Both the position numbers and the translations under genes were made by a program. A stretch of DNA of 34,391 bases from assembly GCA_900316625.1 (NCBI GenBank), contig ONDO01000018.1, forward strand, positions 1 through 34,391, written 5' to 3'. Positions within the stretch are counted from its first letter, which is position 1; the number at the start of each line of letters is the position of its first letter. This stretch comes from an uncultured Lachnospiraceae bacterium. GTDB lineage: Bacteria > Bacillota > Clostridia > Lachnospirales > Lachnospiraceae. Shown piece by piece: positions 14 to 22,416 of the stretch. The notes beneath the pieces are model-generated. The model had not been told where the DNA came from. It ran no database searches and worked only from the letters and a program-made list of their open reading frames with translations.

Positions 14-2287
14 CTAGATCCTCTGAAGATGCCAGGTGTCGCCTTCATACGCGCCCAGGAAGGGGAGTGGAATACCGGCATTCATAAGGAGAGAAGCAGG
101 ATAATCTGCATCCAGCTCTTCGATGTGGTAGATGGCCTCCTGATCCAGCCCCTTCAGGCGAAGGAAGCGTGTAAGGGGATTGCCTTTCGCATCCGTCATG
201 ACGAAGCTAACCAGAGCACGATCCTGTTCCTTAGAGACGAACTGCCAGGCAGACAGATCATCATCATAGCCAAGCGCATTCGGAAGACAATCAAGTCCCT
301 GCCCCATGGGGGAAGCCAGGCGGAAGTAATCACCCTCATGTGAGAGTGCGTAGTCCTGCTTGAAGGACTTGATCTGCTCGCGAATCTGCGCTTTTTCCTC
401 ATCAGAGAGAAGGGTGGGATCCAGTTCGTATCCGAAGGAACCAGCGGAAGCAACCACGCCCCTGGTATGAAAGGGAGTGATGCGGCCGGTCTGATGATTG
501 GGAACGGCAGATACATGAGAACCTACAGCGGAAATCGGATAACCGAAGGAAGTTCCATACTGGATCTCTAAGCGGTTGATGGCGTCTGTATTATCACTAC
601 ACCAGATTTGAGGTGTGTAGTAGAGCATACCGGCATCGAATCGTCCGCCACCGCCACTGCAGCCTTCGATCAGAAGGTCAGGATAGGTGCGATTTAAGCG
701 CTCTAAGAGCTCATAGAGACCCAGAACATAGCGATGCGAAACCTCGCCCTGACGATCCGCCGGAAGGGCCTTGGAATAGAGATCAGACAGGCTACGGTTC
801 ATGTCCCACTTGACGTAAGAGATGTGCGCATTGTCGAGGATCTCCTTCATCTGTTCCCAGATGCAGTCGACAACTTCCTTGCGGGAGAAATCAAGAACGA
901 GCTGGAATCTGGATCTTACCGGATCTCTTCCGTGAATCTTCAGTGCATAGTCCGGATGAGCACGATAGAGATCAGAATCTTCACTGATTGCCTCCGGCTC
1001 GAACCAGAGACCGAAGAGAAGGCCACGATCATTTACAGCCTTTGCAAGTTCGCCCATGGAACATCCCAACTTATCAGTATTCACCTTCCAGTCACCCAGA
1101 CCGGAAGTGTCGCCTTCGCGCTTTCCGAACCAACCATCATCGAGGACCAGAAGATCCATGCCCAGGTCTCTTGCAGAATCAGCAAGAGAAGAGAGCTTGT
1201 CTCCATTGAAATCGAAGTAGGTTGCTTCCCAGTTGTTGAGAAGAACGGGACGCATCTTTGTCTTCCATCCACCACGGATGACGGACTTGTTGATAAAGTT
1301 ATGAATTCGGTTTGTGAGAGTGGAAAAACCAGCTTCCGAATAAGAGAGGATGACTTCCGGAGCAGTGAAAGTCTCACCGGCGGAGAGCTTCCAGGAGAAG
1401 GTGCTGTCGCCGGCACCCATGGTAAGTCTTGTCTGTTTAAACTGATCCATCTCTGCTGTCATGTGGAAGTTACCACTGTACATAAGGTGGATACCATAGC
1501 ATTCACCAGCGTCCTCTGTCGCATTCTTCGTAGACAGCATGACGAAAGGATTGTACTGGTGTGAGGTAGTCCCTCTGGAAGAACCGATGCTAAAGATACC
1601 ATGACCGAGGGCGTGCTTCTGGGGCAGGCGCTCCATTACATGTCTTCCGTGGAAGATGGTAAGGTCGTAGGCACCATAGCTATAGTCCAGATTCAGGCTG
1701 GATACATGCTCTAAACGGACAGGATCAGAGCCATTGTTTCGAATTCTTACGGCACGCGTGATGACATCCTCCTCATAGAAGACACCATAGAGCAGATCAA
1801 CTTCTACGCCGGATACCTTGTCCCTAAGCGTGATGCAGAGAGATTCTGCGTTATCTTCTTTAGAGAAGCAGAGGGAAGAAGCATGAGGGCTGATCCAGTC
1901 CTTGGCAGGATTTGCGGCATAAGATGCGGGAAGCCCTTCTAAGGCATACTTTCCTTCGCTCATCTTAAGGCTATGGAAACGTAGATCGCATCCGTAACTT
2001 CCGTCTTCGTTCTTCATTTCCAGAGCCGTAGAGCGGTAGTCTGCTCCACCATATACGGAGTACTCCTGGGGAAGATGGTCGAGGGAATAGGTGCGGTCAT
2101 TACCTGCATCGTAAGGATTGCCGGAGAAACCATGATCTCTGGGAACGATCAGGATGGATGCGTCACCAGAGATTTTGCTGCCATAGTAGAGATGAAGGAG
2201 AAAACCGTACTGGTCAATCTTCATCTGGTAGGTGGAGTGAAGAGTCTCAAGGGTAATGAGCTTCTGATCTTCGCTGATTCTTATCAT
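14..2287 (-). CDS. GH36 alpha-galactosidase, intracellular
   Basis: It releases terminal alpha-1,6-galactose from raffinose-type sugars or melibiose in the cytoplasm. The 757-residue length is usual for bacterial GH36 enzymes. A beta-sandwich N-terminal part (to about 330) precedes the barrel, which shows VLDDGWFG (381-388), LFGLWFEPEA (424-433), the nucleophile motif KWDMNR with Asp495, and WCSDNTD with the probable acid/base Asp565. The 70-residue spacing of these Asp residues matches characterised family members. EGCSGGGGRFD (541-551) is also typical. There is no signal peptide, so the substrate must be imported. The ATG at 2287 has AGAGGA five bases upstream. It is the last gene of the leftward sugar operon, 26 nt after the LacI-family gene. 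The family assignment is firm. The preferred sugar (raffinose, stachyose or melibiose) is inferred from the neighbours. Confidence 0.96.
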   Translation of the reverse strand: MIRISEDQKLITLETLHSTYQMKIDQYGFLLHLYYGSKISGDASILIVPRDHGFSGNPYDAGNDRTYSLDHLPQEYSVYGGADYRSTALEMKNEDGSYGCDLRFHSLKMSEGKYALEGLPASYAANPAKDWISPHASSLCFSKEDNAESLCITLRDKVSGVEVDLLYGVFYEEDVITRAVRIRNNGSDPVRLEHVSSLNLDYSYGAYDLTIFHGRHVMERLPQKHALGHGIFSIGSSRGTTSHQYNPFVMLSTKNATEDAGECYGIHLMYSGNFHMTAEMDQFKQTRLTMGAGDSTFSWKLSAGETFTAPEVILSYSEAGFSTLTNRIHNFINKSVIRGGWKTKMRPVLLNNWEATYFDFNGDKLSSLADSARDLGMDLLVLDDGWFGKREGDTSGLGDWKVNTDKLGCSMGELAKAVNDRGLLFGLWFEPEAISEDSDLYRAHPDYALKIHGRDPVRSRFQLVLDFSRKEVVDCIWEQMKEILDNAHISYVKWDMNRSLSDLYSKALPADRQGEVSHRYVLGLYELLERLNRTYPDLLIEGCSGGGGRFDAGMLYYTPQIWCSDNTDAINRLEIQYGTSFGYPISAVGSHVSAVPNHQTGRITPFHTRGVVASAGSFGYELDPTLLSDEEKAQIREQIKSFKQDYALSHEGDYFRLASPMGQGLDCLPNALGYDDDLSAWQFVSKEQDRALVSFVMTDAKGNPLTRFLRLKGLDQEAIYHIEELDADYPASLLMNAGIPLPFLGAYEGDTWHLQRI

Positions 2288-2313: not shown

Positions 2314-3300
2314 TTAATGAACCGCCGTAGACTCACGTTCTACGAGAGTGACGGGAAGGATCGTGTTGGTAGGAACCTTCTTGCCTTCGTTTACGTCAGT
2401 AATGATGGATACGGCGCGGTGGACGATCTCATCCATGGGCTGGCGGATGGTCGTGATGGTAGGAGAAGTTCTCTTGGTAAGGTCGACATCATCGAATCCG
2501 ACGACCTTGATCTGATCCGGAACTGAGATGCCTCTTCGATTACATACCTGGAGAACTTCAGCTGCGATCATATCGGAAGTGCAGAAGATGCCGTCACAGT
2601 CGGGATGCTCGTCGAGAACCTGTTCGATCAGAGGGTAGTATTCCATGTTGTTATATTCATCGGGGGAACTACGGTATACTGCACATGCACAGTGATTACG
2701 AACAGCCACACGAAGGAAACCATCTTCACGGGTATCACCAGGCATCTGGGTCGTGTTCATGGTGCCGATGACAACCATATCCTTACAGCCATGCGAAATC
2801 AGATGTTCCGCAGCAGCCTCGCCACCAGCGATGTTGTCACACTGGATAGAATGCGCCTTACCGATGGCGTTTCGCTCGACGAGAACAATAGGAATATGGA
2901 ACTGCTCGAGGATTTCTTCACTGATATCTGCTGAGAAGAGCACAACACCAGCGACAAAGTTATTCTGACAGATGCGAAGGACATGTTCTTCCTTCTCCTC
3001 ATCACCGCCGGAATTGTAGACGAAGAGCTTGTAGTTGTTCTTCGTGCATTCCTTCTCCAGTTTGGAGAGAACCTTGGCGAAGTAAGGATGAATAATATGC
3101 GGAACAACAACCGTAATGATGTCGAGTGTTTTCTTGGACAGAGCCTGAGCGAGGGCGTTGGGTGTGTAGTTCAGCCGTTCCATGGCATCGTACACTTTCT
3201 TCCTGGTCTTTACACTGATGTATCCGCGGTTGTTCATGACGCGCGATACGGTTTCAACTGCTACCCCTGCTTCCTTGGCCACGTCTTTAATGGTCGCCAT
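2314..3300 (-). CDS. LacI-family transcriptional repressor of sugar utilisation
   Basis: This is a DNA-binding sugar sensor of 328 residues. The N-terminal helix-turn-helix (about 3-25, with recognition helix VETVSRVMNN) and hinge (YTPNALAQAL) are canonical. They are followed by a periplasmic-binding-protein-like effector domain (about 60-328). The ATG at 3300 has AAGGGG seven bases upstream. It lies between GH32 and alpha-galactosidase in the same operon, so it is probably autoregulated. The best operator candidates are the even palindromes with core TGNCAANCGNTTGNCA at 7819-7836 and 18362-18385. Central-CG palindromes of this size are what LacI-family dimers bind. Its effector is unknown, with sucrose, raffinose or a breakdown product possible. 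The pairing of this regulator with those operators is inferred from context. Confidence 0.93.
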   Translation of the reverse strand: MATIKDVAKEAGVAVETVSRVMNNRGYISVKTRKKVYDAMERLNYTPNALAQALSKKTLDIITVVVPHIIHPYFAKVLSKLEKECTKNNYKLFVYNSGGDEEKEEHVLRICQNNFVAGVVLFSADISEEILEQFHIPIVLVERNAIGKAHSIQCDNIAGGEAAAEHLISHGCKDMVVIGTMNTTQMPGDTREDGFLRVAVRNHCACAVYRSSPDEYNNMEYYPLIEQVLDEHPDCDGIFCTSDMIAAEVLQVCNRRGISVPDQIKVVGFDDVDLTKRTSPTITTIRQPMDEIVHRAVSIITDVNEGKKVPTNTILPVTLVERESTAVH

Positions 3301-3341: not shown

Positions 3342-4703
3342 TCAGAATGACTGATCTACATGAAGGATGCGCCCTTCAGCGTCGAGACTCTCTCGAGCAA
3401 GACGGTCGCTGATCACCGTCCTGCCATCAATCTCCTTCGTAAATGAAGAGCTTTCCCGTATGAATTCCTGTTTGATGTAATAAGAACCCTCTTCACCGCC
3501 CAAGGTGAATTCTCTCGGAATACTCATCAGTCCATTCCAGAGTTCGCCGTGGTTTTCTGTTCGGAGCCAGGAAATCTGAACGATTCTTCCATCGGTTCCG
3601 AAGGCAGTCTGTGACGCATAGGGACTCACACCCTTTGTGTCAAAGAGTGATTGCATCTCCTGGATTTCGTGAAATTCACGTCCGTCGAAGCTGCCCAGAT
3701 AATAGAATCCGTCTGCGGAAGTGAAAGCCCAGACTTCTTCCTCGCCACGTTTTAGGCAGAAGAGATCAGGACACTCCCACATAGGAGGATAGGAGAATTC
3801 CTGTGTTTTCTCCCAGTGCAGAAGATCTGTACTGCGAAGAATGGCAAAAGCATTTGCTTCCAGGAACAATACCATGATATAACTCTTGCTCGCTTCGTGC
3901 CACAGTATCTTAGGATCTCGATTCTCTCTTGTATATTCTGCGAGTTCGAAAGCAGGGTAGGGCAGAAGAGTTTCTCCTCCATCCAGAGAATAAGCGAGTC
4001 TCTGTGTGAAGTGAACATCTCCCTTATGCTTCTTTCCTTCATGGATGAGAGGGTTTCTGCCTGCATAGGTATAGAAGAAGAGGATGGCGTCCTTGGGCAG
4101 GCCGAGAAGCCCTCTTTCATTAAGAAGAGAGCATCCGGAGAAGCTGCTGCCGGAACGGTCCGGAAGGAGGACATCCCCTCGGAAATGGTAGTGCAGTCCG
4201 TCTGTTGAATAGGAACTTCCCCAGGACATATTCTGCCATTGGCGGTCCATAGGATTGTGCTGATGATAGAGAATCCACTGTCCATTCTGGTAGGTAAAGC
4301 CATTGGGGTCATTGAGGAAGCCATAAGGAGCGTGATAGTGAAGCTCGTCTTCTGGCTGCTCTTCCCACTTGGGGCTGTCGACGAAATGGATATGGTTAAG
4401 GTAAGCCATGATTCTGTCGGAATCGATAGCTTCTCCTTCCTGGGGAGAGAGCATGACAAGCAGAGTCTTCTGACTCTTAACAGACTTCGATGCAGGCTCT
4501 TCATTTACGAAGAGGTCGCCCGGTAACTTCAAGTAGGTAAAACCGTCTGGTTCGTGTGAAGCAGAATCGGTGACGGGAATATTCAGGTGGAAGATCTCTC
4601 TCTCTCCCATGAGGACAGAGAAGGTGCTGTATTCGTTGTCGAGGGAATCTGTTGCCCAGATGGGGCAGGCCATATATTGGCCGGTAATCGTCAGATGGAT
4701 CAT
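3342..4703 (-). CDS. GH32 beta-fructosidase (sucrose/raffinose/fructan hydrolase), intracellular
   Basis: It hydrolyses terminal beta-fructosyl bonds. Catalytic motifs are LNDPNG (nucleophile Asp132), ENRDPK (Asp263, transition-state stabiliser) and MWECPDLF (acid/base Glu310). The open frame extends upstream to a TTG at 4730, but the ATG at 4703 has GGAG five bases before it and is preferred, giving 453 residues. The layout is odd. About 120 residues precede the catalytic motif, where most family members start almost at once. Only about 100 residues follow the last conserved block region, too few for the usual full C-terminal beta-sandwich. There is no signal peptide. It lies between the permeases and the repressor. 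Activity on sucrose, raffinose or short fructans cannot be separated by eye. Confidence 0.92.
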   Translation of the reverse strand: MIHLTITGQYMACPIWATDSLDNEYSTFSVLMGEREIFHLNIPVTDSASHEPDGFTYLKLPGDLFVNEEPASKSVKSQKTLLVMLSPQEGEAIDSDRIMAYLNHIHFVDSPKWEEQPEDELHYHAPYGFLNDPNGFTYQNGQWILYHQHNPMDRQWQNMSWGSSYSTDGLHYHFRGDVLLPDRSGSSFSGCSLLNERGLLGLPKDAILFFYTYAGRNPLIHEGKKHKGDVHFTQRLAYSLDGGETLLPYPAFELAEYTRENRDPKILWHEASKSYIMVLFLEANAFAILRSTDLLHWEKTQEFSYPPMWECPDLFCLKRGEEEVWAFTSADGFYYLGSFDGREFHEIQEMQSLFDTKGVSPYASQTAFGTDGRIVQISWLRTENHGELWNGLMSIPREFTLGGEEGSYYIKQEFIRESSSFTKEIDGRTVISDRLARESLDAEGRILHVDQSF

Positions 4704-4791
4704 ATATTCTCCGATTTGTTCAAAATACAATGATTACAACTTAATTTATATAGAGTGATGGTTAGGAACTATTCAGATACAAAGATGACAA

Positions 4792-4830: not shown

Positions 4831-5691
4831 TTAGCCCTTCACTGCTCCGGAAGTAACACCTTTGACGATGAACTTCTGTAAGAACAGATACAGGATCAGG
4901 ATAGGAAGCATTGCAAGAAGCAGTGCTGCCATTACAAGACCGATGTCTGTGGAATAGGTTCCATAGAACACCTTGGTGGAGATTGGAATTGTGTAGAGAT
5001 CCTTCTGGGTAAGTACCAGGGAAGGAAGCAGGTAGTCATTCCAGAATGCCATAGCATCGATGATAGCGACGGTAGCAGTGGTCGGTCCGAGAAGAGGGAA
5101 TACGATCTTCCAGAAGGTCTGCCATCTGGTACATCCATCAATGTAAGCCGCTTCTTCAAGCTCCCTGGGGATGTTGGTATGAATGGCACCGTGATACATG
5201 AAGGTTGCCATGGATACGCTGAATCCGACATGGAGAAGGATCAGGGTCAGTCTGTGGTTCAGGACACCTAAGATACCGCCGTAGACGGATACGAGGGGAA
5301 CCATCAGAACCTGGAAGGGAATAACCATGGAAGCAATCATTGCTGCGAAGAAGATTGCACAGGCTTTCCACTTGTTACGAACGATAACGTAAGCTGCCAT
5401 ACAGGAGAAGAGGATGGTAAGTACGGTTGCAGAGATCGTAATGATCAGAGAGTTCGTAAATACCTTCCAGAAATTCATCTTCTCCATTGCTGCGGGGAAG
5501 TTATCGAGGGAGAAACCGTGAGATCCGATCAGAGCGAGCGGAGCGGTATTAATATCTGCCTTGGTCTTGAACACATTAATGATAACAAGGACGAAGGGGA
5601 ATACGAAGATGACGAAGAGGACACAGAGCAGGATGAACCTGAGTGTCTTCTGCACCTTCTGAGACATGGATTCTTCAACATGTGTATTCAT
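4831..5691 (-). CDS. Carbohydrate ABC transporter permease (MsmG/MalG type)
   Basis: This is the second inner-membrane subunit of the oligosaccharide importer, 286 residues with about six membrane segments. The first is at roughly 15-37. The cytoplasmic EAA loop EEAAYIDGCTRWQTFWKIV, which docks onto the ATPase, is intact, and the C-terminus FIVKGVTSGAVKG is typical of MalG-like sugar permeases. Its ATG overlaps the stop of the upstream permease by four bases (ATGA), so translation is probably coupled. No ATPase gene is present. In Gram-positive sugar importers of this class a shared MsmK-type ATPase encoded elsewhere usually serves, and I infer the same here. Confidence 0.95.
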   Translation of the reverse strand: MNTHVEESMSQKVQKTLRFILLCVLFVIFVFPFVLVIINVFKTKADINTAPLALIGSHGFSLDNFPAAMEKMNFWKVFTNSLIITISATVLTILFSCMAAYVIVRNKWKACAIFFAAMIASMVIPFQVLMVPLVSVYGGILGVLNHRLTLILLHVGFSVSMATFMYHGAIHTNIPRELEEAAYIDGCTRWQTFWKIVFPLLGPTTATVAIIDAMAFWNDYLLPSLVLTQKDLYTIPISTKVFYGTYSTDIGLVMAALLLAMLPILILYLFLQKFIVKGVTSGAVKG

Positions 5692-6566
5692 GCTTCCACC
5701 TCTCCTTTCTTACCAACATAAACCTGAGTTACACCGATGATTGCGCAGACGATGAAGAGGATCAGAGCCTCGGCCTGGCCGACACCATAGTTTCTGTAGG
5801 TGAATGCGGTGTTATATACGTGCATCGCTGCGAGTTCGGAAGATCCGAAGGGATCGCCGTTGGTCAGGGACAGGTTAACGTCGTAGACTACGAAGCAGCG
5901 GGTAATGCTAAGGAATAAGCACTGTACGAAAGATGCTCTCATCAGAGGAAGGATGATCTTGCGGAGAGCCTGTCCGGGATTACATCCGTCAATCAGTGCA
6001 GCCTCTTTCAGAGACTCGGGAACGCTCATGAAACCAGCAACATAGATCAGCATCATGTATCCGGCATACTGCCATACGGATACTAAGATGAGACAGAACA
6101 TTGCACCAGCTTCGGTAGCAAGAAGAGAAGGAACATTGCCTCCGGAGATAGCGGAAGCGATGGAAACGAATGCACGATTGAAAACAAACTGCCATACGTA
6201 ACCAAGTACGATACCACCAATCAGGTTCGGAACGAAGAAACCTGCGCGGAAGAAGTTCTGACCCTTGATGCCCCGGGTAACCAGGTAAGCAAGAGCAAAA
6301 GCGACTAGATTAATAAGAATGACTGCGAAAAATGAATAAATGAAAGTTCTTCCAAGAGATGCCCAGTATGATGAATCATGAAAGGCATCAATGTAGTTCT
6401 GGACACCGACGAAAGGTTTATTAAGAGCTACGCCGTCCCAGCTTGTAAAAGTAAGGTAGAAACCATAGATCAGGGGTACAATGACGGTTCCAACAAAGAG
6501 AACCAGTGCGGGACCCGCAAACATCAGAAACTGCCTTACCTTAAAGGACATTTTGTTGTTATCCAT
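5688..6566 (-). CDS. Carbohydrate ABC transporter permease (MsmF/MalF type)
   Basis: This is the first permease subunit of the importer. The frame opens at a GTG at 6617, but the ATG at 6566 (MDNNKMSFKVRQ) has GGAGG eight bases upstream and gives the normal 292 residues with the first membrane helix at about 14-36. The EAA loop reads LKEAALIDGCNPGQALRKI. It ends in the four-base overlap with the second permease. It follows the binding-protein gene by 82 nt, a gap that holds a strong hairpin. Confidence 0.94.
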   Translation of the reverse strand: MDNNKMSFKVRQFLMFAGPALVLFVGTVIVPLIYGFYLTFTSWDGVALNKPFVGVQNYIDAFHDSSYWASLGRTFIYSFFAVILINLVAFALAYLVTRGIKGQNFFRAGFFVPNLIGGIVLGYVWQFVFNRAFVSIASAISGGNVPSLLATEAGAMFCLILVSVWQYAGYMMLIYVAGFMSVPESLKEAALIDGCNPGQALRKIILPLMRASFVQCLFLSITRCFVVYDVNLSLTNGDPFGSSELAAMHVYNTAFTYRNYGVGQAEALILFIVCAIIGVTQVYVGKKGEVEA

Positions 6567-6591
6567 TAGGGCTTCCTCCATAAAATAGGTT

Positions 6592-6623
6592 GATGCAGCG
6601 CCCCGAAGTCGAGGCACTGCATC
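6592..6623 (-). promoter_or_regulatory. mRNA hairpin between binding-protein and permease genes
   Basis: Arms GATGCAGCGCC and GGCACTGCATC pair over 11 bp with one mismatch, and a smaller CGGCC/GGCCG stem lies just upstream in the transcript. Such stems after binding-protein genes commonly protect the upstream mRNA 3' end, giving more binding protein than permease. That role is inferred. Confidence 0.55.
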
Positions 6624-6648: not shown

Positions 6649-7707
6649 TTAGTGCTGGGAAAGAGTTGCGCTCTTCCAGTAGTCGTTGATCTCAGATGCG
6701 AAGGTTGCACGATCAGACTGACCTGCAAGGTACTTCTGGAAGGAGGTCCCACCAAGCTTTGCATAGTGATCATCCGGCAGGTAATCGTAGCTGGGGAGGA
6801 GCTGTCCTGCATCAGCATATTCCTTAACGGACTTGCCAAGAGGATCAGCTACAGGAAGGGTGATGTTGGTGAATGCAGGAACAAGTGCACACTTGTTTAC
6901 AAGGCCATCCTGACCGGCTTCGGAAGTAACGAGCCAGTTAAGGAAGTCCTTAGCCTGCTTCTGCTGCTCTTCAGTAGCGGAGTTGTCAACGAAGAAGTAT
7001 TTGGAACCACCGCCAACAAGAAGGGTGTTGAACTTGCCATCCGTGTTCTGAGGAACGGGAATCATGCCAAGACCATCGGTGTAGTCATAAGCGTTGAGTA
7101 CGGACCAATCCCAGTTACCACCGAACATGAATGCGATTTCGCCATCAGCGAGTTTCTGAAGTACTTCCTTGAATCCGTCCAGAGTCTGGCAGGAAGCAGG
7201 ATCGAAATCTTCACCAGTGATGTTCTTGATAGCAGTTGCGTTGTAGATAACGCCACGAGCTTCAATACATACGGGCATTCCATAGGTTGCACCGTCAACA
7301 CCGATTGCGTAGTTGGTGTTCTTGGTCCATTCTTCACCGGAAAGGTCAACAGCATGTTCCTTACCCATAGAGTAGATATCCTTTGCATCTACCATGGAGA
7401 TGGTGTAAGGATTACCGGAAGCGTAAGCAGTAGACAGATCAGTTGCTACGGTGCTTCCGGTTCCCTGTACGGTAACTTTTACAGGTACGCCGGTCTCTTT
7501 GGTGTAAGCCTTAGCGATGTCTTCCATCTGAGACTGGATCTCAGTCTTGGAATTGTAGATGGTGATTCCTGCTGCGCTTCCGTTAGAAGCTGCTTCGGAT
7601 CCCTTGCCGGAACCGTTGCCTGCGGTCTTAGAACCACATCCAACCATCATTGTTGCTGCCATGCTGGCTGTCATTGCGAGTGCCAGAAGACGTTTCTTGT
7701 TTTTCAT
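6649..7707 (-). CDS. Sugar ABC transporter substrate-binding lipoprotein, apparently internally shortened
   Basis: This is the extracellular lipid-anchored receptor that captures sugar for the two permeases downstream. A signal peptide (KNKKRLLALAMTASMAATMM) is followed by lipobox MVGC with Cys24 and a Gly/Ser-rich linker to about 47. The family 1 solute-binding fold follows. The ATG has AGAGGAG upstream. At 352 residues it is shorter than the usual 410-440. From family knowledge, roughly 75-85 residues are expected between the helix DGFKEVLQKL (177-186) and the strand GEIAFMFGGNWDW (189-201), but here they are directly joined. This looks like an in-frame deletion in the C-terminal lobe, biological or from assembly. 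As first gene of the operon, it follows the operator-promoter at 7797-7836. Confidence 0.9.
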   Translation of the reverse strand: MKNKKRLLALAMTASMAATMMVGCGSKTAGNGSGKGSEAASNGSAAGITIYNSKTEIQSQMEDIAKAYTKETGVPVKVTVQGTGSTVATDLSTAYASGNPYTISMVDAKDIYSMGKEHAVDLSGEEWTKNTNYAIGVDGATYGMPVCIEARGVIYNATAIKNITGEDFDPASCQTLDGFKEVLQKLADGEIAFMFGGNWDWSVLNAYDYTDGLGMIPVPQNTDGKFNTLLVGGGSKYFFVDNSATEEQQKQAKDFLNWLVTSEAGQDGLVNKCALVPAFTNITLPVADPLGKSVKEYADAGQLLPSYDYLPDDHYAKLGGTSFQKYLAGQSDRATFASEINDYWKSATLSQH

Positions 7708-7796: not shown

Positions 7797-7825
7797 ATAA
7801 TACCTAGGAGAAGGTGAAATGCCAA
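7797..7825 (-). promoter_or_regulatory. Sigma-A-type promoter of the raffinose/sucrose operon
   Basis: On the minus strand, -35 TTGGCA (7825-7820) is followed by exactly 17 bp and -10 TATTAT (7802-7797). The -35 lies inside the palindrome at 7819-7836, so a bound repressor would block polymerase. A second, weaker possibility is TTTACA-18-TATTTT further upstream (about 7900-7871). Confidence 0.7.
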
Positions 7826-7836
7826 TCGGTTGACAT
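7819..7836. promoter_or_regulatory. LacI-family operator (imperfect copy)
   Basis: Sequence TGCCAATCGGTTGACA plus one flanking pair on each side forms an even palindrome centred on CG, with 7 of 9 positions symmetric. Its core matches the perfect palindrome at 18362-18385. A LacI-family gene is in the operon it controls. Binding is inferred. Confidence 0.75.
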
Positions 7837-12626: not shown

Positions 12627-13652
12627 ATGGCATTTTTGATCATTCTTTTGGTACTGATTTTAATTCTGTTCTTCACAAATGTTAGAATCGTACCCCAGGC
12701 AAAGGCTTATGTAATTGAGAGACTTGGTAAGTATAAGACAACATGGGAGGCTGGTCTTCGCGTTAAGCTCCCTCTGATTGACCGTGTTGCGAAAATAGTA
12801 TCCCTGAAGGAGCAGGTGCTTGACTTCCCTCCTCAGCCGGTTATTACCAAGGATAATGTTGTAATGCAGATCGACTCTGTTGTATTCTGCAAGGTTTTTG
12901 ATCCCGCCCTCTTCACCTATGGTGTAGAGAATCCCATGAGCGGTCTTCAGAACCTCTCCGCAACAACTCTTCGTTCCATCATCGGTGAGATGGAACTCGA
13001 CCAGACACTCACCAGCCGTGAAGAGATCAACGGCAAGATGCAGGCAGTTCTCGATGATGCTACCGATCAGTGGGGTATCAAGGTTACCCGTGTTGAGATT
13101 AAGAACATCAATCCTCCCAGAGAGATCGAAGAGGTTATGACCAAGCAGATGCGTGCAGAACGCGAACGTCGTCAGACAGTCCTCGAGGCACAGGCTCATC
13201 AGGAAGCAGTTGTTTCCCGTGCAGAAGGTGATAAGAAGGCTAAGATCCTCTCTGCAGAAGCTGAGAGAGATGCACAGATTGCTCTTGCAGAAGGTAAAGC
13301 AAAGTCCATCCGCCTGGTATATGAGGCAGAAGCAGCTGGTATTGAAAAGTTAAATCAGGCTAGAATTTCCGAACCTGTTCTCAAACTGAAAGGTATTCAG
13401 GCACTCAAGGATGTTGCAGATGGTCGTGCTACCAAGATTTACATGCCCAGTGACATCGCTTCATCCGTATCCAGCCTTGGCCTGATCGGCGAAGCAATTG
13501 GTATCGGTGATGCAACCCCTATTGACAAGAAAGCAAAAGCAAAACCCGCTCCCAAAGCAGATCCTTGCATTGACGAGAACACCGGCAAGGGTGGCGTTGA
13601 AGCGGCTTATACGACACAGATGATTCAGTCTTCTATGGAGACCCAGAACTAA
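12627..13652 (+). CDS. SPFH/Band 7 membrane protein (stomatin/QmcA-like)
   Basis: This is a membrane scaffold protein of the stomatin/prohibitin superfamily, thought to organise membrane microdomains or protease complexes. An N-terminal hydrophobic helix (2-17) precedes the SPFH domain (about 20-190: VPQAKAYVIERLGKY, GLRVKLPLIDRV, TTLRSIIGEMELDQTLTSREEIN). A long Ala/Glu-rich coiled coil follows (about 170-245) and then a Lys/Pro/Ala-rich tail. The ATG has GGAGGAGA upstream. The NfeD partner often found beside such genes is absent. Its stop codon directly abuts the ATG of dus. A second, more distant SPFH protein is encoded at 21374-22279. Confidence 0.93.
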   Translation: MAFLIILLVLILILFFTNVRIVPQAKAYVIERLGKYKTTWEAGLRVKLPLIDRVAKIVSLKEQVLDFPPQPVITKDNVVMQIDSVVFCKVFDPALFTYGVENPMSGLQNLSATTLRSIIGEMELDQTLTSREEINGKMQAVLDDATDQWGIKVTRVEIKNINPPREIEEVMTKQMRAERERRQTVLEAQAHQEAVVSRAEGDKKAKILSAEAERDAQIALAEGKAKSIRLVYEAEAAGIEKLNQARISEPVLKLKGIQALKDVADGRATKIYMPSDIASSVSSLGLIGEAIGIGDATPIDKKAKAKPAPKADPCIDENTGKGGVEAAYTTQMIQSSMETQN

Positions 13653-18361: not shown

Positions 18362-18404
18362 AATATGTCAACCGGTTGACATATTGAATCAAAGTGACTA
18401 TTTA
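18362..18404 (+). promoter_or_regulatory. Perfect 24 bp operator overlapping the promoter of the kinase-sucrose phosphorylase operon
   Basis: The palindrome at 18362-18385 has core TGTCAACCGGTTGACA and flanking AATA/TATT arms with no mismatch. Its right half contains a consensus -35, TTGACA (18376-18381). A 17 bp spacer leads to TATTTA (18399-18404). A TATAAT at 18403 is too far away (21 bp) to pair with this -35. The same core lies at 7819-7836 with the same distance between its centre and the -35. A LacI-family repressor, probably the one encoded at 2314-3300, is the expected ligand. Confidence 0.85.
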
Positions 18405-18474: not shown

Positions 18475-19425
18475 ATGTTACAGGAAAAGTTAGAAAAGCT
18501 CATTGCAGACAACAATCTCTCCATGCCTGAAGTTACACCCGATATCCCTCATGGTGATATGCCTGGTGATAAGGTTGAGATCGGCGAAGACCACATCAAG
18601 AAGGCAAACGTTATATTAAAGGCTCTGATTCCTATGATGGCAGAGCAGGCTAAGAAGGAGAACAAGAATAAGTTCGTTCTGACCGTTTGCGGTGGTTCCG
18701 GCGTAGGTAAGTCTGAGATCGCATCTCTTTTGTCTTACTACTTCAATCAGAACGGTATTGGTTCTTACACCATGTCCGGTGATAACTATCCTTTTCGTAT
18801 TCCTATGTATAACGATGCGGAACGTCTTCGTGTCTTCCGTTACGAGGGCATCCGGAAGATGCTCTCTGACGGTGTCTACACCGAAGAGCGTTTTAAGACA
18901 CTTCATGGTTTCATGAAGAATGGTGACGATGCGAACAAGAATCATGTTGCAGAGTATCCCTGGATGGCATCCTACCTCGAGGGTGGTCGTATGGGGCTTG
19001 AAGGCTATCTTGGAACTCCGAACGAGACCAACTTCAAGGAAGTAGAAGCTATCCTGAATCAGTTCAAGGCTGGCGATGAGAAGATCTTCATGAAGAGAAT
19101 GGGCCGTGAAGATACCGAACTCTGGTACTCTGAGATCGATTTCTCCGAAGTCAACGTGCTCATCATCGAGTGGACACACGGTAATAATGATTCTTTCACC
19201 GGTGTTGATATCCCCGTTCTTCTGAACTCCACCCCTGAGGAGACTCTTGCACACAGAAAGGCAAGAAACAGAGACGGCGCGATCGACAGCCCCTTCACCA
19301 CCATGGTTCTCGAGATCGAGCAGGAACTTCTGAAGAGCCAGGCTCACAAGGCTAAGATCATCATCTCCAAGGGCGGAGAACTCTGGAACTATGATGACTA
19401 CAAGGTAAATATGGGTCTCTGCTAA
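18475..19425 (+). CDS. P-loop kinase of unknown substrate, sucrose phosphorylase operon
   Basis: This is a 316-residue nucleotide-binding protein. After an N-terminal helical part (1-65), strand KFVLTVCGG leads into Walker A GGSGVGKS (73-80). MSGDNYPFR (100-108) resembles the substrate-Asp region of uridine kinase/phosphoribulokinase-type enzymes. VNVLIIEWTHGNN looks like their second acidic strand, and RKARNRDG may be a lid. The frame opens at a GTG at 18394 inside the promoter. The ATG at 18475 with GGAAG seven bases upstream is preferred. Similar proteins are often labelled adenylylsulfate kinase-like, but nothing here supports sulfate metabolism. Its place between a sugar operator and a sucrose phosphorylase suggests a sugar or sugar-phosphate substrate such as fructose or glucose 1-phosphate. 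This is inference only. Confidence 0.8.
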   Translation: MLQEKLEKLIADNNLSMPEVTPDIPHGDMPGDKVEIGEDHIKKANVILKALIPMMAEQAKKENKNKFVLTVCGGSGVGKSEIASLLSYYFNQNGIGSYTMSGDNYPFRIPMYNDAERLRVFRYEGIRKMLSDGVYTEERFKTLHGFMKNGDDANKNHVAEYPWMASYLEGGRMGLEGYLGTPNETNFKEVEAILNQFKAGDEKIFMKRMGREDTELWYSEIDFSEVNVLIIEWTHGNNDSFTGVDIPVLLNSTPEETLAHRKARNRDGAIDSPFTTMVLEIEQELLKSQAHKAKIIISKGGELWNYDDYKVNMGLC

Positions 19426-19488
19426 AGGAAGACCGGCTCTTTGTTCGAAGAGTTATCGCACTTGTGTGAATCGCTATGAGGTAGAAAA

Positions 19489-21168
19489 ATGGCTAAGAGA
19501 AATATAAGCAGCGGCCCTATGCTGAATGCATATCCTGACAGCATCGGCGGCACATTAGAAGATATCGTAAATGTACTGAAGACAGACGATGTTAGGGGAG
19601 CATTTGATTCCTTCTACATCCTTCCTTCCGTATTCAACACCGATCTGGATCGTGGATTCTCTGTGATCGATTATTCCATCAATGAAGAACTGGCTTCCCG
19701 CCAGGCCATTGAAGATATCAAGAATCTGGGTGTGAGCCTGAAGCTGGACTTCATCTTAAATCACCTGTCCGTTCTGTCTCCCCAGTTCCAGGACATCATT
19801 ACAAATGGTGAGAATTCCAAGTATAAGGACTTCTTCATCAACTGGAATAAGTTCTGGGAAGGCCATGGTCAGATGACCGAAGAAGGTTATATCCAGCCGG
19901 ATGCAGATATCATTAAGGATATGTTCTTCCGTAAGCCGGGACTTCCCATTCTCATGATCCGTTTCCCGGATGGTAAGGACGTTCCTTACTGGAACACCTT
20001 CTATCAGGAAGTTCGCTACGATAAGGTGGACGCACAGGATCTGATGAAGATGGCAAGACTTGCCGGAGAGAAGATGCAGTATATCACTGCTGAGATACTC
20101 TCTAAGAAGATCAATGCAGCTATCGATGAAGGAAAGACTCCTTCCGAGATGGACTTTGCAGGATACGAATCCTATCGGCAGCTTGTCGTCGACGGCCTCG
20201 AAGCAAACCGTAAGTATCTTGGTCAGATGGATCTGAATATCCAGTCTGATCTGGTTTGGGAATATTATGATACGGTTCTTAAGACTCTCGCTGAGTATGG
20301 TGCCCGCATTGTACGTCTGGATGCATTCGCATATGCACCCAAGGCACCCGGCGAAAAGAACTTCATGAACGAACCCGCAACCTGGGATACCCTGGAGAGA
20401 GTTCAGAAGATTGCTGATAAGTACAACCTTCAGCTTCTGCCTGAGATTCATGCATCCTACGGCGAGAAGACTTATGAGGTCCTTGCAGCTAAGGGTTACA
20501 TGACCTATGACTTCTTCCTTCCCGGCCTTCTCATTGACGCGCTCGAGAGCCATAACGGAGCGCATCTTGCTGATTGGGCGCGCGAGATGAAGGCGAATGG
20601 AATTGATACCGTTAATATGCTGGGCTGCCATGATGGTATTCCTCTTCTTGATCTGAAGGGAATTCTCGCTGAAGACCGTATCCAGAACCTGATCGACATC
20701 GTTGTCTCTCGTGGCGGATATGTTAAGGATCTTCATGGTGCCAAGAACATGTACTACCAGGTAAATGCCACGTATTATTCTGCTCTCGGCGAAGATGATA
20801 AGAAGATGCTCTTAGCACGTGCAATCCAGATGTTCATGCCCGGTAAGCCTCAGGTATGGTATCTTGACCTCTTCCAGGGCAAGAACGATCACGAAGCCGT
20901 GAAGCGCGCAGGCGCAGGCGGCCACAAGGAGATCAACCGTACCAATCTCTCTCCCGAAGATATCAAGGAGAGACTGACCTGGCCTTCCGTTCAGGAACAG
21001 CTTAAGCTCCTGAAGTTCCGTAAGGAATGCAAGGCATTCGGCTTCGATGCTGATTTTGATGTGACAGTGGATGGCGCTAACATGACCATGATCTGGTCTA
21101 AGGACGGCGCTAAGGCGACTCTGAAGGCCAACCTCGCTGATTACAGCTACGAGATCATCACCGAATAA
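19489..21168 (+). CDS. GH13_18 sucrose phosphorylase-like enzyme with an inserted helical segment
   Basis: Family members phosphorolyse sucrose (or a related glucoside) to glucose 1-phosphate. Features include ADSIG-like opening YPDSIGGTLED, LDFILNHLS, the nucleophile Asp278 in RIVRLDAFAYA, acid/base Glu319 in LLPEIHASYGEK, and GCHDGIP with Asp382. YQVNATYYSALG and EINR (481-484) match the C-terminal part. At 559 residues it exceeds the usual 480-510. About 65-70 extra residues (roughly 178-246) lie between the WNTF segment and the strand before the nucleophile. The loop after HDGIP that shapes the acceptor/phosphate site is shorter than in Bifidobacterium and Leuconostoc enzymes. Sucrose is likeliest given the operator, but sucrose 6-phosphate or another glucoside is possible. 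GAGGT precedes the ATG. Confidence 0.88.
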   Translation: MAKRNISSGPMLNAYPDSIGGTLEDIVNVLKTDDVRGAFDSFYILPSVFNTDLDRGFSVIDYSINEELASRQAIEDIKNLGVSLKLDFILNHLSVLSPQFQDIITNGENSKYKDFFINWNKFWEGHGQMTEEGYIQPDADIIKDMFFRKPGLPILMIRFPDGKDVPYWNTFYQEVRYDKVDAQDLMKMARLAGEKMQYITAEILSKKINAAIDEGKTPSEMDFAGYESYRQLVVDGLEANRKYLGQMDLNIQSDLVWEYYDTVLKTLAEYGARIVRLDAFAYAPKAPGEKNFMNEPATWDTLERVQKIADKYNLQLLPEIHASYGEKTYEVLAAKGYMTYDFFLPGLLIDALESHNGAHLADWAREMKANGIDTVNMLGCHDGIPLLDLKGILAEDRIQNLIDIVVSRGGYVKDLHGAKNMYYQVNATYYSALGEDDKKMLLARAIQMFMPGKPQVWYLDLFQGKNDHEAVKRAGAGGHKEINRTNLSPEDIKERLTWPSVQEQLKLLKFRKECKAFGFDADFDVTVDGANMTMIWSKDGAKATLKANLADYSYEIITE

Positions 21169-21373: not shown

Positions 21374-22279
21374 TTATTCTGCTGCGGGAGTAGCCGGAGT
21401 GGTGTTGATGATGGGCTGTGAATCTTCCGGAACAACAACCAGGTTACCCTTGCCACCGATGTATTTCAGTGTGTCGTAGTAATGCTGCTTTAAGACCTTT
21501 TCGGTAAGAGAAGAATCGAGGATGGCATTGGCATCTGCTTCGCCCTGCGCATCGATCTTCTTGGTCTCAGCCTGGACCTTGGCGGTTTCCTGCTCGTTTA
21601 AGGCCTGCTGCTTTGCAATCTCAGCGGACTGAGCTTCTGCATATTTGCTGGTGATGGTTTCGGGATAACGAACATCCTGAACAGAAACCTGCTCGACATG
21701 AAGGCCATCCGCTTCCCACTTGTTCGCGAGTGCTTCCTGAACTGCCTTAGTGAACTGGCTACGATCGGTCAGCATTGTGATGGTGTCGTACTTTCCGGAT
21801 ACTTCGCGGGTTACAGAACGAACATCATTGGAGAGATAAGACTGGGTGTAGTTGGTCTGAGTGCCATAGTCAGCATAGAGCTGCTCGGCAGCGGAAGGAT
21901 CCAGAGAGTATACAACCTGGATGTCAATATCGGCAGAGGCACCGGACTTATCATTGATAGTAACATCAGGACCGTTGGCAGCACCGCCGTCATAACGGTA
22001 GTCGGCATCGCCATAGAAGTTGATCAGGTTGTTACGGGTATCATAGGAAACTTTGCTTACCCAGGGAGCCTTGAGATGAAGACCAGGTTCTGAAGTGGAA
22101 CCTAAGATCTTGCCGTCCCAGTTCTTCTGAACGATAGCTTCGCCGATGTCCTGTGTATAGAAACAGTGGCGAAGAATGATCAGTGCAAGGATTGCGATGA
22201 TTACTCCGATCACAAAGCCTTTGCCGATGCGTGGATTAAGATTTACGGTCTGACTTGCACCATTTTTGTTTTTAAACAT
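21374..22279 (-). CDS. SPFH/prohibitin-family membrane protein
   Basis: This is a membrane-anchored protein of 301 residues. It has a cytoplasmic start (MFKNKNGASQTVNLNPRIGKG), a membrane helix (about 22-37), then a prohibitin-like SPFH domain: GEAIVQKNWDGKI, EPGLHLKAPWVSKV, ADIDIQVVYSLDPSAAEQLYADYG, EVSGKYDTITMLTDRSQF. A coiled coil rich in Ala, Glu and Gln (about 210-255) and a Pro/Thr/Ala tail follow. The frame extends to 22357, but the ATG at 22279 has GAGGAGAG upstream. It is divergent from the lipoprotein gene and has no protease or NfeD neighbour. It is only distantly like the SPFH protein at 12627-13652. Confidence 0.91.
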   Translation of the reverse strand: MFKNKNGASQTVNLNPRIGKGFVIGVIIAILALIILRHCFYTQDIGEAIVQKNWDGKILGSTSEPGLHLKAPWVSKVSYDTRNNLINFYGDADYRYDGGAANGPDVTINDKSGASADIDIQVVYSLDPSAAEQLYADYGTQTNYTQSYLSNDVRSVTREVSGKYDTITMLTDRSQFTKAVQEALANKWEADGLHVEQVSVQDVRYPETITSKYAEAQSAEIAKQQALNEQETAKVQAETKKIDAQGEADANAILDSSLTEKVLKQHYYDTLKYIGGKGNLVVVPEDSQPIINTTPATPAAE

Positions 22280-22416
22280 AAGTGTTCTCTCCTCATGTAT
22301 ACGAAAATTAGTTACATGCCTTATGGTAACAGACTGCATCATAAATGCCATACCCAATTCATGATAATTAGAGTAAAATATATCGACAGATTTAGAGAAT
22401 TAACGAGGTGACTTAC

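What the first reader, a model, noticed from the sequence alone, without database searches (positions are those of the whole stretch)
18475..21168. Unassigned P-loop kinase locked to a sucrose phosphorylase-like enzyme
A Walker A kinase with a uridine-kinase/phosphoribulokinase-like layout sits first in a two-gene operon under the sugar operator. Phosphorolysis of sucrose yields fructose and glucose 1-phosphate, and no recognisable fructokinase is in either sugar locus. The protein may be a non-homologous fructokinase, a glucose 1-phosphate kinase making the 1,6-bisphosphate cofactor of phosphoglucomutase, or a kinase preparing the phosphorylase substrate. This is the best candidate for an undescribed enzyme here.
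Basis: partly seen in the sequence, partly recalled or inferred. Interest (0 to 1): 0.75.

Follow-up and report, generated by a model that had tools for sequence, protein, structure and literature searches.

The report
Sucrose kinase paired with phosphosucrose phosphorylase
The unknown kinase is most likely an enzyme that adds a phosphate to sucrose so that the neighbouring enzyme can split it, which would explain where bacteria get a sugar phosphate whose source has been called unknown.

Summary
Both genes are real. The kinase (18475-19425 +) is a stand-alone relative of the sucrose-kinase domain of Ruminococcus gnavus AgaSK. The phosphorylase (19489-21168 +) is not an ordinary sucrose phosphorylase: it has the KxxYYQ loop and the phosphate-pocket residues of the strict sucrose 6F-phosphate (S6FP) phosphorylases, so its substrate should already carry phosphate on the fructose.

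All 30 kinase homologues from a neighbour-blind search have a relative of this phosphorylase directly downstream. In four taxon samples (772 genome entries) 55 of 55 genomes with a strong kinase hit have it, and 57 of 57 with a strong hit to it have the kinase or, in two, a divergent form beside it. Often both form one polypeptide. The gene for the crystallised Ilumatobacter coccineus enzyme overlaps such a divergent kinase. The 18 Lachnospiraceae genomes with only other GH13_18 enzymes lack the kinase.

Best explanation: sucrose + ATP -> S6FP -> glucose 1-phosphate + fructose 6-phosphate. Sucrose kinase activity is published, but at glucose C6, which does not fit the partner; a 2020 review calls one source of S6FP unknown. 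The window gene is a new variant of a known enzyme; the phosphorylation site is the testable point. No chemistry was tested here.

The parts
18475..19425 (+). Stand-alone sucrose kinase (SK), 316 aa: Walker A residues 73-80, SGDNYP 101-106, IEWTHGNND 231-239, R261/R264/R266
   Evidence: ORF; alignment; residues G73,S75,G76,G78,K79,D103,R117,G180,E232,T234,D245,T257,R261,R264,R266 are the same in 70 of 70 SK rows (41 positions were printed); AlphaFold2 mean pLDDT 90.2; PRK/UDK-type fold. Catalytic roles are inferred.
19489..21168 (+). Sucrose 6F-phosphate phosphorylase (SPP), GH13_18, KxxYYQ type, 559 aa
   Evidence: D278, E319, D382 = IcSPP D223, E264, D327; R148, K413, Y422-Y423-Q424, K480 = IcSPP R152, K364, Y376-Y377-Q378, K434 (matched on the alignment; residue roles from PMC6720575)
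18366..18381 (.). 16-bp palindromic LacI-type operator upstream of the SK-SPP operon
   Evidence: function inferred
7820..7835 (.). Second copy of the operator (2 mismatches) upstream of the sugar ABC importer operon
   Evidence: function inferred
6649..7707 (-). Sugar ABC importer, solute-binding protein
   Evidence: Pfam SBP_bac_8 / SBP_bac_1
4831..6617 (-). Two sugar ABC permeases (5688-6617 and 4831-5691)
   Evidence: NCBIfam hits below equivalog cut-offs
3342..4730 (-). GH32 enzyme of the same regulon
   Evidence: Pfam PF00251; scrB_fam 97.4 bits, cut-off 356.4
2314..3300 (-). LacI-family regulator, candidate binder of both operators
   Evidence: binding inferred
14..2287 (-). GH36 alpha-galactosidase, a separate gene here but fused to SK in AgaSK
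   Evidence: Pfam Melibiase 493 bits; matches the GH36 part of GH36-SK fusions

Best explanation
The kinase is an ATP:sucrose 6F-phosphotransferase. Sucrose, or sucrose freed from raffinose by the GH36 enzyme of the same regulon, enters unphosphorylated through the ABC importer. The kinase phosphorylates it on C6 of the fructose half. The next gene's phosphorylase then cleaves sucrose 6F-phosphate with inorganic phosphate to glucose 1-phosphate and fructose 6-phosphate. The cell spends one ATP per sucrose, releases no free hexose on this route, and needs neither fructokinase nor glucokinase for it. Shown here by sequence: homology to the AgaSK kinase domain, the SPP residue set, the co-occurrence, the fusions, the shared operator. 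Published for relatives: sucrose phosphorylation by AgaSK, strict S6FP specificity of RgSPP and IcSPP. Inferred: sucrose as the substrate of this protein, fructose C6 as the site, the transported sugar and the direction of flux.
For: (1) Homology to a proven sucrose kinase: GH36-SK fusions of 938 aa (L131) and 932 aa (L132) carry the domain at the C-terminus. The GH36 part of L053, the same gene as L131, matches PDB 2YFN 'alpha-galactosidase-sucrose kinase AgaSK' at 954 bits, next best 475. Its kinase domain matches the SK profile at 2.7e-49 and 2.6e-21. (2) Partner specificity: of 85 SK-linked SPP rows (77 distinct strings) every row with a letter there has R148 (84/84), K413, Y422, Y423, Q424 (80/80 each) and K480 (76/76); K419 in 77/80. 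Y422 (0/33) and K480 (1/33) set them apart from 33 other GH13_18 rows; R148 (19/33), K413 (16/33), Y423 (30/33) and Q424 (26/33) do not. (3) 30 of 30 loci found without regard to neighbours have an SPP relative immediately downstream (L003 and L019 hold only its first part, L030 only the end of the kinase). (4) Same-genome test: strong SK (E <= 1e-40) 23, 2, 2, 28 and strong SPP (E <= 8e-138) 23, 4, 2, 28 in samples of 299, 246, 80, 147 genomes; every strong SK has SPP, and the two extra SPPs (G819, G883) adjoin a weaker SK-like kinase. (5) Single-polypeptide SK-SPP ORFs in 9 of 30 loci, 4 of 23 and 27 of 28 genomes, with 6 label changes on the SK tree, at least 2 forced by strongly supported branches. 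(6) The SPP gene identical over 523/523 residues to 6S9U overlaps a divergent SK by 4 bp. (7) A kinase of the same short type lies 21 bp before a TtSPP-type enzyme (GFDVHQ loop) in G1023, followed by an MFS transporter, which would bring in free sugar. (8) No TIGR01996 sucrose-PTS hit in the own genome nor in 20 of 37 other SK genomes.
Against: The published statement for AgaSK is phosphorylation at C6 of glucose (PMC7688924 abstract and introduction, citing Bruel 2011, not held and not read); the 2020 paper identifies the product as S6P by mass spectrometry. No assay or docking was done here. The window kinase is 34-46% identical to the AgaSK-type domains and has about 40 residues (roughly 125-164) that they lack, so specificity could have drifted. 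A GH32 gene sits in the same regulon and could hydrolyse sucrose or a sucrose phosphate. SK-like kinases of about 220 aa, as weakly similar as those of G819 and G883, occur without SPP: G792, G814, G907, G928 and, with GH65 or GH65-like neighbours, G961, G977, G1024. Two other TtSPP-like loci (L070, L071) have no SK-like ORF within the roughly 1.5 kb fetched on each side. The genome is 83.65% complete, so absence of a PTS is not certain; 17 of 37 SK genomes have some TIGR01996-like protein, 1 over the cut-off of 559 bits and 5 more at 496-547.
Confidence: 0.8

Rival explanations
1. As published for AgaSK: the kinase phosphorylates C6 of glucose, giving sucrose 6G-phosphate for a GH32 hydrolase; SPP in the same operon handles a separate, imported S6FP.
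For: Stated in PMC7688924 (abstract, introduction) and used in the model of PMC6521584; a GH32 gene lies in the window's regulon.
Against: The window's GH32 finds no match in the 30 SK loci while SPP is in 30 of 30 (some loci are short). 57 of 57 strong-SPP genomes have SK or an adjoining SK-like kinase. Fusion of SK to SPP is hard to explain if SK's product is not SPP's substrate. IcSPP, given glucose 1-phosphate and more than 30 acceptors, used only fructose 6-phosphate (PMC6720575).
Confidence: 0.1
2. Fructokinase serving the GH13_18 enzyme or the GH32 enzyme.
Against: The partner's residues are those of enzymes that release fructose 6-phosphate. 18 Lachnospiraceae genomes with only other GH13_18 enzymes have no such kinase. 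AgaSK's kinase phosphorylates sucrose with Km 1.0 mM alone and 3.1 mM in the fusion (PMC7688924).
Confidence: 0.04
3. Glucose 1-phosphate kinase making glucose 1,6-bisphosphate for phosphoglucomutase.
For: Sucrose phosphorylase and SPP both make glucose 1-phosphate.
Against: It should then accompany sucrose phosphorylases too, and in the Lachnospiraceae sample it does not; homology is to a sucrose kinase.
Confidence: 0.02
4. Nucleoside or adenylylsulfate kinase that happens to sit here.
For: Weak profile hits to apsK and uridine kinase; PanK/UCK/PRK-type fold.
Against: Scores far under curated cut-offs (23.6 of 163, 19 of 138.7, 15.7 of 180 bits); 30 of 30 homologues next to an SPP relative.
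Confidence: 0.01

Closest known systems
AgaSK of Ruminococcus gnavus E1, kinase domain (PMC7688924, PMC6521584)
   Same: Homologous P-loop kinase domain; gene cluster with an SPP and a sugar ABC importer; GH36 in the same regulon
   Different: Here a stand-alone 316-aa protein, 34-46% identical to AgaSK-type domains, with about 40 extra residues; GH36 is a separate gene about 16 kb away. The published product is sucrose 6G-phosphate, while the partner here should demand 6F.
Separate kinase gene of Clostridium sp. L2-50 (named in PMC7688924)
   Same: Kinase not fused to GH36, in an SPP cluster
   Different: Described there only as a split form of AgaSK; its sequence was not compared here
Strict sucrose 6F-phosphate phosphorylases IcSPP (6S9U) and RgSPP
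   Same: Catalytic triad, KxxYYQ loop and the phosphate-pocket residues tested; 53% identity to the IcSPP-identical protein of L167
   Different: 559 aa against 523 aa; RgSPP itself was not compared, only SPPs of AgaSK-type loci
TtSPP (6S9V)
   Same: Same reaction by publication
   Different: Different pocket (Arg134, His344, GFDVHQ loop); published context is a PTS and a phosphofructokinase (PMC7178133)
Uridine kinase / phosphoribulokinase superfamily (PF00485)
   Same: Predicted fold; short SK relatives reach the PF00485 cut-off of 22 bits: L167 26.9, L232 33.4, L233 50.1, L169 33.2
   Different: The window protein itself reaches no member family's cut-off

Membership tests
AgaSK-type sucrose kinase | Sequence homology to the C-terminal domain of AgaSK | tested here: met
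   GH36-SK fusions, one with a GH36 part matching 2YFN at 954 bits, carry the domain. The R. gnavus E1 kinase sequence itself was not in hand.
AgaSK-type sucrose kinase | Walker A nucleotide-binding motif | tested here: met
   GGSGVGKS, residues 73-80
AgaSK-type sucrose kinase | Fused to a GH36 alpha-galactosidase | tested here: not met
   Separate ORFs 14-2287 and 18475-19425. So it is a homologue of the kinase domain, not an AgaSK.
AgaSK-type sucrose kinase | Gene cluster with SPP | tested here: met
AgaSK-type sucrose kinase | ATP-dependent phosphorylation of sucrose | not testable with these tools
   Needs purified protein
Strict sucrose 6F-phosphate phosphorylase (EC 2.4.1.329) | GH13 nucleophile, acid/base and transition-state Asp | tested here: met
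   D278, E319, D382
Strict sucrose 6F-phosphate phosphorylase (EC 2.4.1.329) | KxxYYQ loop A and Arg152/Lys364/Lys434 (IcSPP numbering) | tested here: met
   K419, Y422-Y423-Q424, R148, K413, K480. Of these, Y422 and K480 separate the class from 33 other GH13_18 rows; K419 largely (5/33).
Strict sucrose 6F-phosphate phosphorylase (EC 2.4.1.329) | Activity on S6FP and none on sucrose | not testable with these tools
   Published for RgSPP and IcSPP only
Sucrose phosphorylase (TIGR03852, EC 2.4.1.7) | N(L/V)D(I/L/V)YQ loop A and curated score | tested here: not met
   Loop reads KNMYYQ; 321.2 against 334.4 bits
Uridine kinase (PRK05480) | Curated cut-off score | tested here: not met
   15.7 of 180 bits
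Adenylylsulfate kinase | Curated cut-off score | tested here: not met
   PRK03846 23.6 of 163 and apsK 19 of 138.7 bits

The most novel reading that the evidence does not exclude
The published regiochemistry of AgaSK is wrong: the whole SK family makes sucrose 6F-phosphate and is its missing source. It is also one branch of a wider family of P-loop disaccharide kinases, each tied to a phosphorylase that splits the phosphorylated disaccharide: GH13_18 SPPs of two different pocket types, and, for related short kinases, GH65 phosphorylase loci with a HAD mutase and, in one locus scanned, a trehalose-6-phosphate synthase/phosphatase. That would be a PTS-free 'phosphorylate, then phosphorolyse' route spread over at least four phyla, in its most evolved form a single kinase-phosphorylase polypeptide.
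Probability: 0.4. Interest if true: 0.78.

Novelty: new variant of a known kind. Interest (0 to 1): 0.6.

Why it matters
Two published results from one R. gnavus gene cluster do not fit together: a kinase said to make sucrose 6G-phosphate and a phosphorylase selective for sucrose 6F-phosphate. [quoted passage not shown] The pairing and the fusions say that the kinase is the source. One NMR spectrum or one coupled assay would settle it. Proteins annotated as sucrose phosphorylase or as uridine, adenylylsulfate or unknown kinases at such loci would be reassigned.

Tried and rejected
Fructokinase, glucose 1-phosphate kinase and nucleoside/adenylylsulfate kinase were considered and rejected (see rivals). 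A PDB sequence search with the kinase gave only weak P-loop matches (best 4e-5). The VIA-align library was not available. The promoter scan found no site on the + strand near the operator: 3 promoter-like sites, all on the - strand, against 5.7 expected. SK/SPP identity correlation over 2415 pairs is r = 0.72, which common descent alone could give, so I do not lean on it. One Lachnospiraceae SK hit (G108) was dropped: it is an adenylylsulfate kinase (PF01583, 210 bits). Weak kinase hits in G709, G737, G759, G797, G808, G872, G903 (E 1e-6 range), G981 and the second hit of G995 were not followed up. In the tallies SK-like kinases with E near 1e-10 to 1e-12 and no SPP (G792, G814, G907, G928, G961, G977, G1024) and G1023 are not counted as SK, although the two in G819 and G883, equally weak, adjoin an SPP; they are listed under evidence against. 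The SPP profile was built almost wholly from SK-linked SPPs of one pocket type, so TtSPP-like enzymes fall in the weaker class; between E 8e-138 and 1.9e-85 no genome's best hit fell. Overlap between the two actinobacterial samples was not checked. Of 86 loci rows 16 repeats or fragments were left out of the tree. Searches for prior description: 'sucrose 6F-phosphate' + 'sucrose kinase', 3 papers; 'ATP-dependent sucrose kinase', 0; 'sucrose kinase', 11; 'sucrose 6F-phosphate phosphorylase', 10; 'disaccharide kinase', 2. No listing and no passage that I read describes an SK-SPP fusion or S6FP as the kinase product, but the library lacks most subscription papers and most listed papers were not opened.
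Full report
What is there. The finding covers two ORFs on the + strand, 18475-19425 and 19489-21168. A perfect 16-bp palindrome lies at 18366-18381 and a 14/16 copy at 7820-7835, ahead of a sugar ABC importer, GH32, LacI-type regulator and GH36 on the - strand. The two loci therefore look like one sucrose/raffinose regulon.

The phosphorylase. TIGR03852 (sucrose phosphorylase) scores 321.2, under its cut-off of 334.4. The best solved structure is 6S9U (E 3e-163). PMC6720575 (abstract, passages and the first part of section 4 seen) gives 6S9U as the strict sucrose 6F-phosphate phosphorylase of Ilumatobacter coccineus, with Arg152, Glu264, Lys364, Gln378 and Lys434 as the predicted contacts of the fructose 6-phosphate half. 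PMC7178133 (passages seen) gives KXXYYQ as the loop A motif of the strict SPPs and N(L/V)D(I/L/V)YQ as that of sucrose phosphorylases. The window protein has R148, E319, K413, K419-N-M-Y422-Y423-Q424 and K480. In one search, over 85 SK-linked rows (77 distinct strings), every row with a letter keeps R148 (84), K413, Y422, Y423, Q424 (80 each) and K480 (76); K419 is kept in 77 of 80. Among 33 other GH13_18 rows (sucrose-phosphorylase, glucosylglycerate-phosphorylase-like and TtSPP-like loops mixed) Y422 is 0 of 33 and K480 1 of 33, but R148 is 19, K413 16, Y423 30 and Q424 26 of 33, so those four alone would not discriminate. The enzyme should need phosphate on the fructose half.

The kinase. 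No family cut-off is reached and no PDB chain matches well by sequence. The AlphaFold2 model from 27 sequences has mean pLDDT 90.2. Foldseek places it among pantothenate kinases, uridine-cytidine kinases, 3C8U and phosphoribulokinases (best E 5.5e-7; TM by query 0.37-0.49 in the 50 rows shown). The decisive homology came from whole genomes: two Lachnospiraceae proteins of 938 and 932 aa carry GH36 in front and this kinase domain at the end. The GH36 part of the first matches 2YFN, AgaSK, at 954 bits with the next best at 475; that of the second at 748 bits. Lafond 2020 (PMC7688924; abstract, sections 9 and 15, passages seen) reports that the AgaSK kinase phosphorylates sucrose with Km 1.0 mM alone and 3.1 mM in the fusion.

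Coupling. A search of GTDB contigs by kinase peptides alone gave 30 loci, and all 30 have an SPP relative directly downstream (cut short by the contig in L003 and L019). The window's GH32 finds no match in the 30 and its GH36 one in 4 (L004, L005, L006, L022); several loci are short, so these are lower bounds. In 299 Lachnospiraceae genomes the kinase profile hits 24; G108 is an adenylylsulfate kinase and was dropped, leaving 23. Strong SPP hits occur in exactly the same 23. Another 18 have only weaker GH13_18 hits (best E 1e-58 to 2e-85) and no kinase; the 7 of these whose loci were read all have an NLDIYQ loop (L109-L115) and no SK-like ORF in the fetched flank. Three genomes (G015, G170, G214) have both classes. 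In 246 Actinomycetota genomes 2 have strong SK and strong SPP (G700, G878); 2 more have SPP (E about 1e-138) with a divergent SK beside it (G819, G883). In 80 genomes of the family of Mangrovibacterium 2 have both, and in 147 of the family of Propioniciclava 28 have both. The sum is 55 of 55 strong SK with SPP, and 57 of 57 strong SPP with SK or a divergent SK, in 772 genome entries. These genomes are not independent, but the contig loci cross Bacillota, Actinomycetota, Bacteroidota and Gemmatimonadota (titles). A class-level relative outside the family (G611) has GH36-SK-SPP in a row.

Exceptions. Short SK-like kinases of about 220 aa, as weakly similar as those of G819 and G883, also occur without SPP. 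In G792 and G814 they overlap an ORF of 724 or 699 aa without known family. In G907 the kinase follows ABC-importer genes at a contig end. In G928 it precedes a beta-phosphoglucomutase-GH65 fusion. In G977 it follows a GH65 gene and a HAD gene, with a trehalose-6-phosphate synthase/phosphatase divergent to them; G961 and G1024 look the same by eye. These kinases reach the PF00485 cut-off where scanned. They suggest that SK is one branch of a wider sugar-kinase family.

Fusions. Kinase and phosphorylase are one ORF in 9 of the 30 contig loci (L016, L017, L019, L020, L022, L024, L027, L028, L031; L019 cut by the contig end) and in 4 of 23 Lachnospiraceae genomes (789, 815 and 834 aa, and one cut by a contig end). 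They share one open frame in 27 of 28 Propionibacteriaceae-family genomes (20 of those loci re-read as ORFs, 20 of 20 fused). On a tree of 70 SK rows the fusion label needs 6 changes (gains or losses), and at least 2 are forced by strongly supported branches. PMC7688924 describes fusion of the kinase to GH36; fusion to SPP appears in none of the passages I saw.

Two further tests. The gene overlaps by 4 bp a 217-aa kinase that matches the SK profile at 1.6e-29. Second, in G1023 a kinase of the same short type (6.6e-27) lies 21 bp before a GH13_18 enzyme closest to TtSPP (6S9V, 458 bits) with the GFDVHQ loop, and an MFS transporter gene follows. Against this, two other loci with the GFDVHQ loop (L070, L071) show no SK-like ORF within about 1.5 kb; the published TtSPP operon holds a PTS and a phosphofructokinase gene instead (PMC7178133). 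The review notes that evolution found two acceptor-site architectures for SPP activity; in G1023 the same kinase type serves the second one. What the two SPP types share is S6FP.

Why the other guesses fail. A fructokinase or a glucose 1-phosphate kinase should accompany sucrose phosphorylases at least as often; in the Lachnospiraceae sample it does not. Import by PTS is not the general source: TIGR01996 is absent from the own genome and from 20 of 37 other SK genomes; 1 of 37 is over the cut-off and 5 more come close (496-547 of 559 bits). From general knowledge, not a call, the sucrose PTS phosphorylates the glucose half in any case.

The conflict in print. PMC7688924 says that AgaSK phosphorylates sucrose on C6 of glucose (citing Bruel 2011, not held, not read) and that RgSPP uses S6FP. 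PMC6521584 (section 21 and passages seen) proposes import of dietary S6FP. PMC7178133 calls the source currently unknown, as an alternative to a PTS. The genomic evidence says that the kinase makes S6FP. I put sucrose as the substrate at about 0.9 and fructose C6 as the site at about 0.85; both are inferences until assayed.

Verdict. The window gene is a stand-alone, longer form of a known sucrose-kinase domain, in an operon with its phosphorylase. What is new, as far as the searches show, is the breadth, the kinase-phosphorylase fusions, the kinase beside both SPP types, and the reading that the published phosphorylation site is wrong or differs from that of the rest of the family.

Noticed in passing
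L130 3697-5847 (also in L012 and L037): A 716-aa ORF with an N-terminal PF00144 beta-lactamase-fold domain (155 bits) fused to a C-terminal sucrose kinase, followed by SPP; possibly an esterase acting on acylated sucrose (guess).
   Followed up: partly
L172 2-640 and 782-3985: SK-like short kinase followed by a 1067-aa beta-phosphoglucomutase-GH65 fusion: a candidate disaccharide kinase-phosphorylase pair for another sugar.
   Followed up: partly
L233 464-6769 (L234 and L235 alike by eye): A short PF00485-type SK-like kinase in a row with a GH65 gene and a HAD gene, next to a divergent trehalose-6-phosphate synthase/phosphatase: could be a trehalose or related disaccharide kinase.
   Followed up: partly
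L169 4957-7775 and L170 5709-8452: SK-like 215-aa kinase whose gene overlaps by 4 bp a 724- or 699-aa ORF without any Pfam or NCBIfam match and, for L169, without any PDB match.
   Followed up: partly
L042 2379-3862: The SPP gene of G214 is split into two overlapping ORFs in different frames downstream of an intact kinase; assembly error or decay not decided.
   Followed up: no
window 12627-13649 and 21374-22357: Two SPFH/Band 7 proteins on opposite strands, the second directly downstream of and convergent with the SK-SPP operon.
   Followed up: no
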